Made by a program: the position numbers and the translations under genes
Shown: positions 2,646 through 41,236 of the stretch, piece by piece
Position numbering within the stretch: the first letter of the stretch is position 1
Layout of the letters: each line of letters opens with the position of its first letter
IMG/VR virus record: IMGVR_UViG_3300036759_000025
Coordinates: 64,001-112,874 of that record
Source: a virus
Direction: 5' to 3' (one strand)
DNA length: 48,874 bases
The notes under the pieces: generated by a model
What the model was told of the DNA's origin: nothing
Databases searched by the model: none
Seen by the model: the letters and a program-made list of their open reading frames with translations, nothing else

Positions 2646-2975
2646 ATGGCAGGACCCGATGTGATCAAGGCTCGACCGCCCGTGATCCTGTCCTCAGCCG
2701 TCAAGGGCTACCGTCCCGAGTCGATGGACGTGCCAGCCGGGTACGTACTGAAGACGGGGCCACGTCGTCCGGCTGCGGGGTTCTCGGCTGACACGGCGAC
2801 GAAGACGCCGGGAGCGATTGCCAAGCCAATGGGCACTGGTTCGCCGGATCGCATCCCTGAGGCCAACCTGCGACGGCGTTCCGGGCACACCGTCAAGCCG
2901 CCTGACAGGCTCGGCCTGCCGGGGCGTGTGATCATCCCCAACAACGGCATCTCACTGCCGAACAGCAATCGGTGA
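2646..2975 (+). CDS. Small late protein with RVIIPNNG C-terminal motif
   Basis: 109 residues, start ATG with GGAGGTGAACAAGCGAC upstream. Pro/Arg/Gly-rich, ending GRVIIPNNGISLPNSNR. The end of the next gene product (PRVIIPYDGKSLGQSDTLS) is clearly related, so the two proteins share a C-terminal peptide, perhaps a docking tag to the same virion partner. Overall function unknown. Confidence 0.75.
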   Translation: MAGPDVIKARPPVILSSAVKGYRPESMDVPAGYVLKTGPRRPAAGFSADTATKTPGAIAKPMGTGSPDRIPEANLRRRSGHTVKPPDRLGLPGRVIIPNNGISLPNSNR

Positions 2976-2979
2976 CATC

Positions 2980-3195
2980 GTGGCCATCCCGACTGCATCA
3001 CGGGTCGCTTGGCCCACGCCATCGGCGGGCTCGACCGGCCCCACCAGCAGTAGCTACCGCGCAGCAGATCGCTACCAGCCTCGTCGGCGTTACAGCCGTG
3101 GTAGCGGGGCTCATGCTCCTGCGCTGGCTAACAAGCCGCGTGTCATCATCCCGTACGACGGCAAGTCGCTCGGGCAGTCGGACACGCTGAGCTAG
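2980..3195 (+). CDS. Small late protein sharing the RVIIP tail peptide
   Basis: 71 residues from a GTG at 2980, four bases after the previous stop. Ser/Thr/Ala/Arg-rich N-terminal two thirds, then the shared tail RVIIPYDGKSLGQS. It is the last gene of the rightward structural cluster; two hairpins follow. Unknown function; probably a paralogue-like virion component by the shared tail. Confidence 0.7.
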   Translation: MAIPTASRVAWPTPSAGSTGPTSSSYRAADRYQPRRRYSRGSGAHAPALANKPRVIIPYDGKSLGQSDTLS

Positions 3196-36771: not shown

Positions 36772-37000
36772 TCTGCCGCATCTCGTGCCCCGCGCAGGTT
36801 CTATCAATCGGGCTGTCTATGACAGCTTGGAATACAGCGAACAGCACTCGGCCGAGGAGGTGGTGGATACGGTCAATTCGCGCTTCTTGCCGCAGGCCGT
36901 GCTGCACTCGCTGGCCAATCTCCAGGAAGCTGGGCTGGCAGAGAGTACACACCGGCATGGCATCACTTACTGGCGGCGGGCGGGAGGAGGACCCGGATGA
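36761..37000 (+). CDS. Small winged-helix-like regulator 1
   Basis: 79 residues: INRAVYDSLEYSEQHSAEEV, VNSRFLPQAVLHSLANLQEA recognition-helix-like stretch, GLAESTHRHGITYWRRA wing-like end. The layout matches the next gene product, so they are paralogues (helix-turn-helix plus wing). Probably transcription regulators of this region or of the array. Confidence 0.7.
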   Translation: MSSDLPHLVPRAGSINRAVYDSLEYSEQHSAEEVVDTVNSRFLPQAVLHSLANLQEAGLAESTHRHGITYWRRAGGGPG

Positions 37001-37275
37001 GAAAGCAGGATGTGCTACTCCAGAAGCCGTATCCGGGCAGTAACAGGCGCTTGGTGTATGACGCGCTCGATTACAACATTGGGCTCAGTACGCTCGACCT
37101 GGTGGCGGAACTGCCGCTGACTGTCAGTCAGATTTACAGGGCCTTGCGGCACCTGGAGGCGTATGGGCTCGTGGAGCGCACACGCAGCAGGGCGAACGGC
37201 CGCAGCCTGTGGTTTTTGGTCGGGGCTACGCCGGACAACGACCCCACGACTGTGCTGCCCGGAGAGCCGCTGTAG
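36997..37275 (+). CDS. Small winged-helix-like regulator 2
   Basis: 92 residues: NRRLVYDALDYNIGLSTLDL, then LTVSQIYRALRHLEAYGLVE (recognition helix) and RTRSRANGRSLWFLVG (wing). A compact winged-helix domain. It is the last gene before the repeat array and could control it. Confidence 0.75.
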   Translation: MRKQDVLLQKPYPGSNRRLVYDALDYNIGLSTLDLVAELPLTVSQIYRALRHLEAYGLVERTRSRANGRSLWFLVGATPDNDPTTVLPGEPL

Positions 37276-37291
37276 CTCGGCCTGACGGGCT

Positions 37292-37330
37292 CTCGCGCGC
37301 ACGCGCGGGCGGACGATACACGCGCGCGAG
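37292..37330. terminator. 9-bp inverted repeat between regulator operon and array
   Basis: CTCGCGCGC (37292-37300) and GCGCGCGAG (37322-37330), perfect. It could end transcription from the regulators or act as an operator for the array promoter. Confidence 0.5.
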
Positions 37331-37342
37331 GGCTTCTTGCGC

Positions 37343-37348
37343 TATGAT
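37343..37348 (+). promoter_or_regulatory. -10-like TATGAT element of the repeat array
   Basis: GCGCTATGATCTC on the plus strand, the same core as the leftward promoters of this phage. It lies about 25 bases before the first recognisable repeat, so the array probably has its own rightward promoter. No clear -35. Confidence 0.55.
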
Positions 37349-37373
37349 CTCAGCGACCCATGCCCAGCGTGGT

Positions 37374-39706
37374 CAGAGCCAACGCATTGAATCAAGCAAC
37401 ATGACAAGTGAGCGAGTCAAGGTGCCAGGAGAGCACCAAATCTGAAGAACGAGCCTGGAACATCGAGGATGCCATTCGGCAAGAGCGAGCCCACCCTGGC
37501 GAGAGTGCCAACCTGAGATAGCGAGCCTAGCTGCGAGCACGCCATACCATGCAAGCGAGTCACAGGCTGTTGAGGGGACCATCAACAACGAACGAGCCGC
37601 CGTCTCAGGAGCGCACCCTACAAGATGAGCGAGTCACCAACTCAGATGGCACCAAGTCTCACGAGCGAGCCGTTGGCTCATAGAGCACCAGTCACCGCGA
37701 GCGAGTCATCGTTTCCGAGAGTACCAACCAACCGAAGCGAGTCAATGTATTGGAGAGCACCAAAACATCCGATCGAGCCAATGTACTTGACAAGCTACAT
37801 GCCGAATCAGCGAGCCGAGGTGCTAGAGAGCGCCCAATCAAGAGAGCGAGCCTGGACGCGGAAGAGGGCCATTGTAAAGGAGCTAGCCATTAGAGCGGAG
37901 TAGCACCAGACTACCTTAGCGAGCCCTGGACTCCTAGCGCACCAAAGAACCGTAGTGAGCCAATAGATGTGAGGGTACCAAGTAGCGACAGCGAGCCTGC
38001 CACCCAGGAGAGCACCATCCTTCCTGATCGAGCCATATAGTGAGAGTGAGCCATCTCTGCGGAGAGCGCCCTAAACAGCAAGCGAGCCATGACCTATAAG
38101 GGTGCCATTTAGTGGAAGCGAGCCTGGCTCCCGAAGCGTGCCACCCTGCCTGATCGAGCCATACGGAAAGAACGCGAATAGCACCTTGACGGAAGAGCGA
38201 GTCATTCAATCAGAGCGCACCAGTCGGCCGGTGAACGAGCCAGAACTACAGGAGTAGTACCAGCCCCCGGTGAGCGAGCCATGTATTCCGGAGGGCACCG
38301 CAGTACGTGAGCGAGACAAGGACCAGCAGCGCACCAATTCACGACGATCGAGCCATTGTCGCGGAGAGCACCACACTCTCAAAGCGAACCAACCGGCTTG
38401 ATAGAACCTTCAACAACGAGTGAGAGCCTGAAGAAGCTAAGAGTACCAACCAGGTGGAGCGAGCCAATGGTCTTGAGGGAGCCTCTGACATTGGAGCGAG
38501 CCAACAACACCGGAGAGCACCTGTAGCTGGGAGCGAGCCACTGACAACGAGGGCACCGTTGAAGAAGAGCGTCAGTCACGGCGAGTGGACCAAGGACAAC
38601 CCGCTAGTCAAATTGCCCGAGAGCACCAAGCAGTAAGAACGAGTCAACAACCATGATTTGTACCATGGCGTCCTGAACGAGTCACAGCAAATTGATAGCA
38701 CCAACCCCGGAGAACGGAGCCAACTGTCCATAAGAGCACCACGTTCCACGAGCAAACCCCGTTCTCAGAGAGCGCCCAGGTCTTTGAGTGAGCCGCAGAG
38801 CCCAAGCGGTCCAGGTTGTGCAAGCGAGCCAGGGAACTGAAGAGCAACCAGCTTGACCAAGCGAACCTTCGGACTCGATAGCAACAGAGCTTACGAGTGA
38901 GCCAAACGTATCAAGCTGCACCACATAGCGCGAGCGAGCCGAGTTCACTTAGAGTACCCTCGAACTGAAGCGAGCCAACTACCAAGGAGGGTGCCAAGCA
39001 TCCAGAACGAGTCATGCAATCGGAGAGTACCATCAGAACTGAACGATCCAATGTTCCAGAGAGCACCCTGTGTTCGGAGTGAGCCCTAGACTCGGATAGC
39101 AACACTGCTGACAAGCGAGCCGTATATACGGAGGGCACCATAGCGTTTGAGCGAACCGCAAAGGGGAGAGCACCAGAAGGTATCAGTGAGCCAGATCCGT
39201 TGAGAGCACCAGGCATGAGCAGCGAGCCATGCAAGATGTGAGCACCACTGCGTGTAGGAGCGAGACACGATTTCAAAGAGCACCAAAGAAGCCGATCGAG
39301 CCAAGCTAGCCCAGAGCACCTGTCTTACGGGAGCGAGCCTAACATCTTGATTTGCACCATCAAGGAGTAGCGAGCCATCAGTCGAGAGAGAACCTACGCT
39401 TCGGAGAGCGAGCCCAAGGACGTGATAGCAACTTAGATGTCTTAGCGAGCCATTCTTCCCAAGAACACCAAAGAAGGAAGAGCGAGACATCGCTCTGAGA
39501 GGACCAAGAGACGCGATCGAACAGCCATGCTAATCGAGCGTGCCAGCTAAGCAGAGCGAACCTCACAGCGAGAGCGCACCGTACCTTGCGAGTGAGTCAT
39601 GTTGAAGCAGAGTACCAGTCGAGTTGAACGAACCGATGCCTGGATAGCACCATGTCTTAGGAGTGAATCATGAAGTACAAGTGCACCACTGTCTACACGA
39701 ATGCCA
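37374..39706 (+). repeat. TIGR-type array: about 64 units of ~36 bp with two alternating repeats
   Basis: Two repeat types alternate every 18 bases: type 1 GAGCGAGCCA (variants AGCGAGTCA, ATCGAGCCA, AACGAGTCA) and type 2 GAGAGCACCA (variants GAGAGTACCA, GAGGGCACCA, GATAGCACCA). Type 1 copies start, for example, at 37629, 37665, 37701, 37737, 37773, a regular 36-base step, and type 2 copies lie halfway (37683, 37719, 37755). About 8 variable bases separate them, so each unit has two different spacers. Both repeats end in CCA. By hand I count 63-65 type-1 copies. There is one extra half-unit near 38046-38064, an enlarged gap at 38162-38178, and degenerate ends (37374, 39697). It matches TIGR arrays, known to be cut into 36-nt guide RNAs with two spacers. 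It is not a CRISPR: repeats are too short and spacers too small. Confidence 0.9.
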
Positions 39707-39720
39707 ACTAAGGAGACAAA

Positions 39721-40671
39721 TTGAATCGCAGCACTACTCAGATCGAGGAGCTTGCGCGCCTCACCAGCGACATCCGCAGTGCCACCCGCACCCTGGAGCG
39801 GCGGGAGGCGCGCTATCTGGTGGACACCTACTACCAGCTACAGGACTACCGGATCTCGTCTGACAACCAGATCCGCAGCATGGCGAAGGATGCCGAGCCG
39901 CACCTGACGCTCGACTTCTTCGCCCACCAGATGCGTACCCTGGAGAACCAGGTGCGCTCGGTGCTCAACACCTGGACCGATACCGAGGAACTGGGTATCT
40001 GGGCTAAGTCGATAACTGGCATCGGGCCTGTCATCGCGGCCGGACTGCTGGCCCACATCGACATCGAGAAGGCTCCCACGGTCGGCCACATCTGGCGCTA
40101 CGCCGGATTCGACCCCACCGTCGAGTGGGGCAAGGGCGAAAAGCGGCCCTGGAACGCCAGCCTCAAGGTCGTCTGCTGGAAGGCGGGCGAGAGCTTCGTC
40201 AAGGTGTCTGGCAACAAGAACGACATCTACGGCAAGATCTACCTCCAGCGCAAGGACTTCGAGATCCAGCGCAACGATGCCGTGAAGGAGATCTCGCGCA
40301 ACGCCATCGAGGTCGTCGGTCACCAGGGGACCAATGACGACGGCAGCTACTTGATCATGGTTGACAAGGAGCTTGTCTCGGTCTACGAGATCGACGGTCG
40401 CTTCTACTACGACGGCAATGCCAAGCACGCCTACAGCACGCTCAAGCGCAAGAAGATCGGCAAGGACACCGACGCCTACAAGAGCTACAGCATCGGCAAG
40501 CTGCCGCCTGCGCACATCCACGCACGGGCCAAGCGCTACGCCGTCAAGCTGTTCCTGGCCCACTTCCACGAGGTCGGCTACAAGCTCCACTACGGCACCG
40601 AGCCGCCCGCGCCCTACCCGATCGCCATCCTTGGCCATGGGCACCGGATTCCGGCTCCCAACGCCGCGTAG
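39721..40671 (+). CDS. tas: Tas-like protein (Nop / IS110-transposase-C-like fold), nuclease-less
   Basis: 316 residues from a TTG with AAGGAGAC upstream, 15 bases after the last degenerate repeat. Residues 1-90 are long helices with coiled-coil pattern (LARLTSDIRSATRTLERREA), like the coiled-coil part of Nop proteins. Residues 96-135 (KSITGIGPVIAAGLLAHIDI, then TVGHIWRYAGFDP) are the helix-hairpin-helix of the IS110-type Transposase_20/Nop family; the following NASLKVVCWKAGESF corresponds to the conserved helix after it. Residues 258-310 (GKLPPAHIHARAKRYAVKLF, then YGTEPPAPYPIAILGHGHRI) form the conserved C-terminus of the phage branch. No HNH, RuvC or DEDD residues are visible, so it should bind guide RNA and DNA without cutting. 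Adjacent to the array, it fits the Tas component of a TIGR-Tas system. Confidence 0.85.
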   Translation: MNRSTTQIEELARLTSDIRSATRTLERREARYLVDTYYQLQDYRISSDNQIRSMAKDAEPHLTLDFFAHQMRTLENQVRSVLNTWTDTEELGIWAKSITGIGPVIAAGLLAHIDIEKAPTVGHIWRYAGFDPTVEWGKGEKRPWNASLKVVCWKAGESFVKVSGNKNDIYGKIYLQRKDFEIQRNDAVKEISRNAIEVVGHQGTNDDGSYLIMVDKELVSVYEIDGRFYYDGNAKHAYSTLKRKKIGKDTDAYKSYSIGKLPPAHIHARAKRYAVKLFLAHFHEVGYKLHYGTEPPAPYPIAILGHGHRIPAPNAA

Positions 40672-40707
40672 GCTCGCAGCGCCTCGACAGACCCACTAGA
40701 ATGCCCC

Positions 40708-40787
40708 GTAGCGCCGCCCGAGGCCGGTTTTCTGCCATTCGGCTGGATCTGGTTTGAAGGGACCACAGCCGGTACAGGCGGCGCTAC
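40708..40787 (+). repeat. 11-bp inverted repeat after the Tas gene
   Basis: GTAGCGCCGCC (40708-40718) and GGCGGCGCTAC (40777-40787) are exactly complementary, 58 bases apart. It may be a terminator or a boundary element for the TIGR-Tas locus. A TAGAAT hexamer just upstream (around 40697) could also start the next operon. Confidence 0.5.
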
Positions 40788-40825
40788 ACTCGTTGACAAC
40801 AAACTTGGCTACCAAAGGGGGCCAA

Positions 40826-41236
40826 TTGAGTAACACACTGAATGACCTGCTCCACAGCTTGACGATGAACTTCGCATCCGGGCTGCGGATCTCAGATGAC
40901 CGCCGTACTGTCAGCGTCAGCCTGATGGGTCCTGCTGGCGACTTCGTGCTGATCTTCGAGCACCCTGACCCTGAGCGCATCGCCCGTGTCAAGAAGAGCG
41001 ACGGAGCCGCCTACGCGGTGCCGGTGCACATCAGGCTGGTCAACCGCAATTCCGGCAAGGATGTGCGCGGCTTCGGGAGGATGGGCAAGTACCTGAACCC
41101 CTACTGGATCAGGCGTTTTGTCTACGAGATTGCTGCCGCCGTCGCCTGGATGGAGCGCGAGTGGGACATCATGTCGCCTGAATACGTCGAGCACGTGGAT
41201 AAGAGCAACCGGGAGGACGAAGATGCCGACAACTAG
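40826..41236 (+). CDS. Hypothetical protein
   Basis: 136 residues from a TTG at 40826 with AAGGGGG upstream. LSNTLNDLLHSLTMNFASGL opening, a beta section (TVSVSLMGPAGDFVLIFEHP) and a helical end (RRFVYEIAAAVAWMEREWDI). First gene of the right-hand operon. Unknown. Confidence 0.7.
   Translation: MSNTLNDLLHSLTMNFASGLRISDDRRTVSVSLMGPAGDFVLIFEHPDPERIARVKKSDGAAYAVPVHIRLVNRNSGKDVRGFGRMGKYLNPYWIRRFVYEIAAAVAWMEREWDIMSPEYVEHVDKSNREDEDADN

What the first reader, a model, noticed from the sequence alone, without database searches (positions are those of the whole stretch)
39721..40671. The Tas-like protein carries no nuclease domain
I see no HNH, RuvC or DEDD signature in 316 residues, only coiled coil, helix-hairpin-helix region and a conserved C-terminus. 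A nuclease-less guide-binding protein would repress, exclude or mark DNA rather than cut, or recruit a separate nuclease. The roughly 90-residue stretch between the two conserved parts (about 165-255) is variable and could hide a new module.
Basis: partly seen in the sequence, partly recalled or inferred. Interest (0 to 1): 0.75.

Follow-up and report, generated by a model that had tools for sequence, protein, structure and literature searches.

The report
Nuclease-free TIGR-TasA guide-binding protein
A phage gene beside a long array of short guide sequences encodes an RNA-guided DNA-binding protein of the known TasA type, which has no DNA-cutting part; this copy carries a small extra folded piece found in only one other relative, and its guides change much faster than the protein does.

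Summary
In detail: the 316-residue protein has no nuclease domain. An AlphaFold model (pLDDT 87.5) aligns with TasH (Z 18.9) and TasR (Z 17.4) only over the parts after their HNH and RuvC domains, with about 23 residues left in front. NCBIfam places it in TIGR-Tas at 196 bits against a cut-off of 100. It follows a period-36 dual-repeat array of about 60 guide units. This is a TasA, the solo-Nop effector that Faure et al. 2025 call the commonest Tas type, so the missing nuclease is typical, not surprising.

The "variable 90 residues" resolve to a normal 31-39-residue linker (72 of 74 homologues) plus a 43-residue alpha/beta insert (188-230) present in 2 of 74. The insert matches no known fold and shows no nuclease signature. 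No conserved partner gene lies next to tas; a RuvC-like resolvase lies 54 kb away.

Most likely it binds, unwinds and bends guided DNA without cutting, blocking transcription or replication. No guide target was found. Guides turn over fast: 4 units shared between two syntenic phages, and near-random spacers among eight mycobacteriophages whose TasA is 98% identical.

The parts
39721..40671 (+). tasA: 316-aa solo-Nop TIGR-associated protein without nuclease domain
39710..39715 (+). AAGGAG ribosome-binding site directly after the array
   Evidence: read
39799..39978 (+). coiled-coil helices, residues 27-56 and 62-86 (dimerisation coiled coil in TasR, by homology)
   Evidence: role from PMC12045711
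40012..40059 (+). residues 98-113, GIGPV helix-hairpin-helix-like stretch of the Nop C-terminal part
40282..40410 (+). residues 188-230, small alpha/beta insert (strand 189-191, helix 193-199, strands 201-204, 210-214, 217-224, 227-230), present in 2 of 74 homologues
40411..40506 (+). residues 231-262, family-wide linker between the two conserved parts
40507..40593 (+). residues 263-291, conserved C-terminal helix
37372..39687 (+). TIGR dual-repeat array: alternating GAGCGAGCC(A) (edge) and GAGAGCACC(A) (loop) repeats, spacers mostly 9 nt, 36-nt unit, 64 parsed edge-loop pairs; a last partial repeat appears to run to about 39706
36997..37275 (+). small gene upstream of the array with weak matches to replication-initiation and transcriptional-regulator families; link to the system not shown

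Best explanation
The protein is a TIGR-TasA: a dimeric Nop-domain protein loaded with 36-nt guides cut from the array just upstream. Each guide has two spacers that pair with opposite strands of one short DNA site. Lacking a nuclease, the complex most likely binds, unwinds and sharply bends the site and thereby blocks transcription or replication of the target, which is probably a competing mobile element rather than the phage itself. Shown here: solo-Nop architecture, dual-repeat array, unit structure, guide turnover. Inferred: guide loading, DNA binding, the blocking step, the kind of target. The 43-residue insert is inferred to be a lineage-specific accessory patch, not a nuclease.
For: Fold match to TasH and TasR beginning right after their nuclease domains; NCBIfam TIGR_Tas 196 bits vs cut-off 100, IS110 far below cut-off; PDB profile E 6e-22 for TasR, 1e-13 for TasH, 7.5e-4 for IS621; period-36 type array beside tas in 68 of 73 relatives, 0 of 73 in shuffled sequence; four guide units shared with phage G001 as edge-A-loop-B blocks, which fixes the unit; no close target in the phage's own genome, as expected if it avoids itself; all 74 homologues are 263-386 aa without a significant nuclease family match among the families shown.
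Against: No target was found for any guide, so the blocking role rests on analogy. No RNA or binding data exist here. Box D reads AG rather than the UG of TasR (my reading). Four viral-collection scans used a register one base off; the corrected register was tested for only two guides there.
Confidence: 0.7

Rival explanations
1. The complex marks target DNA and a separate nuclease, such as the phage RuvC-like resolvase or a host enzyme, does the cutting.
For: A RuvC-like gene exists in G000 and its relative G001 (E 9.9e-6 and 2.7e-4, both below the curated cut-off; one search names the G000 one RuvC-like Holliday junction resolvase, E 7e-4). In eight mycobacteriophages tasA is next to, or one small gene from, a gene that is a Cas4-type exonuclease or lies in its place.
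Against: The RuvC-like gene is 54 kb from tas. RuvC was not found in G002 or G003, which also carry tasA (0 of those 2; records may be incomplete). Cas4 occurs in 1015 phage records against 83 with the mycobacteriophage-type TasA, so it is a general gene there. No neighbour is conserved in the window's own clade.
Confidence: 0.1
2. The complex is an RNA-guided regulator of the phage's own or its host's genes.
For: A nuclease-free complex would be safe on self DNA; known dead-Cas regulators set a precedent (recalled).
Against: 0 own-genome sites with 0 or 1 mismatch for 57-58 guides, and 1-3 sites with 2 mismatches, as in shuffled pairings. Units are mostly not shared with a syntenic phage. Host genes could not be tested: host unknown.
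Confidence: 0.15
3. The 43-residue insert is a cryptic or degenerate nuclease.
For: It forms a beta-hairpin next to a helix; H201, N205, D206, D207, D215 and E217 are the same in both carriers.
Against: No GIY-YIG or HNH_3 match at E 10 anywhere in the record; no Pfam match at E below 0.1 for the insert alone; best Foldseek E 0.12, best VIA Z 2.9, though that model is poor (pLDDT 57). Absent from 72 of 74 homologues.
Confidence: 0.03
4. It is an IS110-type transposase remnant.
For: Pfam Transposase_20; PHROG 4285 named transposase.
Against: No DEDD domain; IS110 model 29 bits against a cut-off of 140; dual-repeat array; Tas structures match better than IS621 or ISCro4.
Confidence: 0.02

Closest known systems
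TIGR-TasA (Faure et al. 2025, PMC12045711), such as FpTasA of Flavonifractor plautii
   Same: Solo Nop domain, no nuclease, dual-repeat array with 36-nt unit and 9-nt spacers, mostly carried by phages
   Different: About 60 units against the 5 to 15 described as most often seen; 43-residue insert 188-230; box D read as AG
TasH (PDB 21kl, 9w04) and TasR (PDB 9mty)
   Same: Coiled coil and Nop C-terminal part, Z 17 to 19
   Different: N-terminal HNH or RuvC domain absent here
IS110 recombinases IS621 and ISCro4
   Same: Related Nop-like C-terminal part, Z about 12.4 to 12.9
   Different: No DEDD domain; a guide array instead; a bridge RNA was not sought
Solo-Nop proteins of Fromanvirus mycobacteriophages (for example Euphoria gp70)
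   Same: TasA without nuclease, 235 aa
   Different: No period-36 array; a five-unit stem-loop array just upstream

Membership tests
TIGR-TasA | Nop domain related to TasR and TasH | tested here: met
TIGR-TasA | no nuclease domain fused | tested here: met
TIGR-TasA | adjacent array of two alternating 8-12-nt repeats with about 9-nt spacers | tested here: met
TIGR-TasA | box C CCA at the end of both repeats | tested here: met
   second-last letter C in 46 of 64 edge and 56 of 64 loop repeats, last letter C in 62 and 63 of 64; next base A in 37 of 58 and 46 of 61
TIGR-TasA | box D shared by edge and loop repeat | tested here: inconclusive
   both repeats read AG at this place; TasR has UG; pairing not tested
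TIGR-TasA | array processed to 36-nt RNAs bound by the protein | not testable with these tools
   needs RNA sequencing of a pull-down
TIGR-TasR or TasH | N-terminal RuvC or HNH domain | tested here: not met
   only about 23 residues precede the matched part
IS110 transposase | N-terminal DEDD domain | tested here: not met
   alignment to IS621 starts at its residue 125; no DEDD family among the Pfam matches of the protein; IS110 model far below cut-off

The most novel reading that the evidence does not exclude
Nuclease-free TasA systems run a fast guide-diversifying contest between phages without ever cutting DNA: the binder stays nearly constant while its guides are replaced, and some lineages, such as this one, add a small non-catalytic module to the Nop domain that changes what happens to the bound site (roadblock, bridging, or recruitment of another protein).
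Probability: 0.3. Interest if true: 0.75.

Novelty: new member of a known kind. Interest (0 to 1): 0.42.

Why it matters
What TasA does without a nuclease, and how TIGR arrays gain spacers, are both stated as open in Faure et al. 2025. This locus has a very long array and a syntenic relative whose array has mostly changed. The same protein class sits in sequenced mycobacteriophages, where constant stems and near-random spacers in eight isolates make the question testable in Mycobacterium smegmatis mc2 155.

Tried and rejected
Targets of the window guides: own genome and three related phages, 79 foreign TasA loci and the viral collection. Nothing clearly exceeded shuffled pairings. Small excesses that I did not follow up: G001 guides in G000 gave 3 sites with 2 mismatches against a shuffled mean of 0.55 and maximum of 2, one of seven tests there; some counts at 2 mismatches were at or near the top of their five shuffles. 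Collection hits numbered 3, 16, 4, 5, 7 and 3 stretches; contexts were checked for only. In one search, five hits lie in one gene of near-identical contigs, six of seven hits are gapless but lie in genes without detectable similarity to one another. I take all for chance.

Searches placed the spacer one base too early (including the A of CCA). One search repeats the local tests in the corrected register; searches do so for two of the four shared guides.

Targets of mycobacteriophage guides: no gapless exact 18-base match in 50,697 phage records for 14 of 31 distinct guides; a control 18-mer was found at E 6. Gapped or mismatched targets were not tested there. In 50 kb of Euphoria the best site for any of the 31 guides in the expected order has 3 mismatches.

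Partner nuclease: HNH 0 of 4 records; GIY-YIG and HNH_3 0 in the own record; PHROGs and Pfam on 10 early proteins gave a helicase, families of unknown function and one weak late-promoter regulator match; PHROGs on 10 neighbours gave no nuclease; PADLOC gave nothing for TasA. Not all genes of the phage were scanned.

Cas4 as partner: rejected as specific, 1015 records have it against 83 with that TasA (different E-value limits, 1e-20 and 1e-10).

Insert alone: model poor, no fold match. Absence from those lists does not show a new fold. Selection on the insert is inconclusive: dN/dS about 0.41 on 43 codons, 0.30 for the whole gene.

Promoter and terminator scan of 36950-40830: nothing above shuffles. 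Plasmid collection: no relative.

Rows dropped: 12 duplicate proteins and L012 (same contig as L002) before the 74-row alignment; one search returned only the best 80 of 237 relatives.

Full report
What is there. The ORF at 39721-40671 encodes 316 residues from a TTG codon with AAGGAG five bases upstream. It lies in a 112,874-base virus record with a 127-base direct terminal repeat, which suggests a complete phage genome. Directly upstream, 37372-39687, is an array of alternating repeats GAGCGAGCC(A) and GAGAGCACC(A) with mostly 9-base spacers and a 36-base unit. A parser found 64 of each repeat; a few around 38114-38162 are misparsed. The period-36 signal is 0.54 against at most 0.38 in 20 local shuffles.

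No nuclease. Pfam finds above its cut-off only the IS110 C-terminal family. Sequence search of solved structures gives TasH and TasR, over the Nop part only, and IS110 recombinases weakly. The AlphaFold model (mean pLDDT 87.5, pTM 0.83, 74 sequences) aligns with TasH residues 66-309 at Z 18.9 (rmsd 3.4, 217 residues) and with TasR residues 112-322 at Z 17.4 (rmsd 2.5, 193 residues); IS621 and ISCro4 score 12.4 to 12.9. The HNH and RuvC domains lie before these ranges, and only about 23 residues of our protein precede its matched part. D114 of our protein aligns with D in both TasR and TasH, whose catalysis is elsewhere, so it need not mark a hidden active site. NCBIfam NF052498 (TIGR_Tas_endo) scores 196 bits against a cut-off of 100. 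That model, 215 positions long, matches our protein from residue 30 and spans almost all of the 235-residue Euphoria gp70. It therefore covers the Nop part alone, and its word endonuclease is not supported for this protein.

The variable stretch. In an alignment of 74 distinct homologues, the distance from N185 to L261 (ends included) is 31 to 39 residues in 72 and 77 in two: the window and phage G001 (L002). The extra 43 residues, 188-230, are predicted as strand, helix and four strands with pLDDT of about 77 to 93. The same elements appear when residues 185-262 are modelled alone, though at low confidence (57). No fold or family match was found. A relative, L004, carries a different insert, of about 50 residues, near residue 141 instead, so the Nop part tolerates insertions.

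Is a partner encoded nearby? Flanking ORFs of 74 loci were clustered. Apart from tas and its shadow frames, the widest clusters are one in 30 loci close to tas, which I take for translated arrays but did not check, and one in 11 loci about 3.4 kb downstream. None of the ten window neighbours scanned is a nuclease by PHROGs. HNH was found in 0 of 4 related phages. A RuvC-like gene (49356-50000 of G000) was found in G000 and G001 below the curated cut-off and is closest to phage Holliday junction resolvases.

Guides. Phage G001 is syntenic with G000 at about 66-83% DNA identity over the aligned blocks, TasA included, and its TasA is 83% identical. Of 34 parsed G001 units, some of them spurious because the parser ran through a small ORF, four are shared: second spacers identical, first spacers with 0 to 2 changes, one of them only after allowing for a one-base shift that I made by eye. 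Among the 58 and 25 cleanly parsed guides, four exact second-spacer matches compare with 0.01 expected in shuffles. In the other grouping the best unit pair has 3 differences and the rest 5 or 6, so the unit is edge, spacer A, loop, spacer B. No guide has a target with 0 or 1 mismatch in its own genome.

A wider view. The same class occurs in 83 phage records, 76 of them named Mycobacterium phages, annotated as transposase, HTH or hypothetical protein. In Euphoria the 335 bases before gp70 hold five palindromes, four with 30-31 bases inside and one with 39. Folding of the strand is stronger than in 100 shuffles (z -3.55). In eight phages most units fit the pattern stem, CA, 9 bases, D-loop-C, 9 bases, C, stem; some later units of BPBiebs31, Chanagan, Francis47 and BigPaolini were parsed less cleanly. 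For units 1 (8 of 8 phages) and 2 (7 of 8), stems are 91-100% identical and spacers 27-57%, with 26% expected at random, while TasA is 98.3% identical. These look like the stem-loop arrays of Faure et al. That paper cites a mycobacteriophage review for its phage loci, so their presence may be known to its authors; its main text does not describe this spacer variation in the sections and passages I read.

Literature. I read sections 8 to 10 and 49 of PMC12045711 and parts 1 and 2 of its full text, and searched it for terms. Of the other papers listed I saw the search listing and abstract starts only; none of those listed for TIGR-Tas terms looked like another primary study of these systems. Subscription papers and supplements were not available.

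Mechanism. In TasR the guide's two spacers pair with opposite strands of an unwound 18-base site and the DNA turns by 180 degrees (PMC12045711). A TasA that does the same without cutting would be a roadblock. The paper offers this and help to integrases as possibilities. Fast guide turnover with a nearly constant protein favours targets that change, that is, rival elements, over fixed self or host genes. This is inference: no target was found.

Verdict. The protein is nevertheless an ordinary TasA. The insert and the unusually long array make it a distinctive member, not a new kind.

Noticed in passing
L005:2636-2970 (Mycobacterium phage Euphoria, upstream of gp70) and L141-L147: Five-unit stem-loop guide array upstream of a solo-Nop TasA in mycobacteriophages: conserved stems and boxes, near-random 9-base spacers, TasA 98.3% identical in eight phages.
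   Followed up: partly
NCBIfam NF052498: The model named TIGR-Tas system RNA-guided endonuclease covers only the Nop part and passes its cut-off on nuclease-free TasA proteins, so the name will mislead.
   Followed up: yes
G001, about 2890-3075 (L095): An apparent small ORF (read by eye) interrupts the guide array of the closest relative.
   Followed up: no
L004:5986-6975: A TasA with a different insert, of about 50 residues, near residue 141, beside a period-36 array downstream.
   Followed up: no
G000:C1:49356-50000 (outside the window): RuvC-like Holliday junction resolvase gene, also matched in G001.
   Followed up: partly
G000 ends: 127-base direct terminal repeat, so the record is probably a complete genome.
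   Followed up: no
L092 (Acidobacteriaceae bacterium KBS 96 chromosome): A TasA 60% identical to the window's (its protein equals that of L015), with the same edge repeat GAGCGAGCCA and 8-base spacers; its host genome is held and could be searched for targets.
   Followed up: no
L140-L147 (mycobacteriophage records): tasA lies next to, or one small gene from, a Cas4-type exonuclease in most of the eight phages viewed (in Chanagan the gene there is a hypothetical protein), but that exonuclease is far more widespread than tasA.
   Followed up: yes
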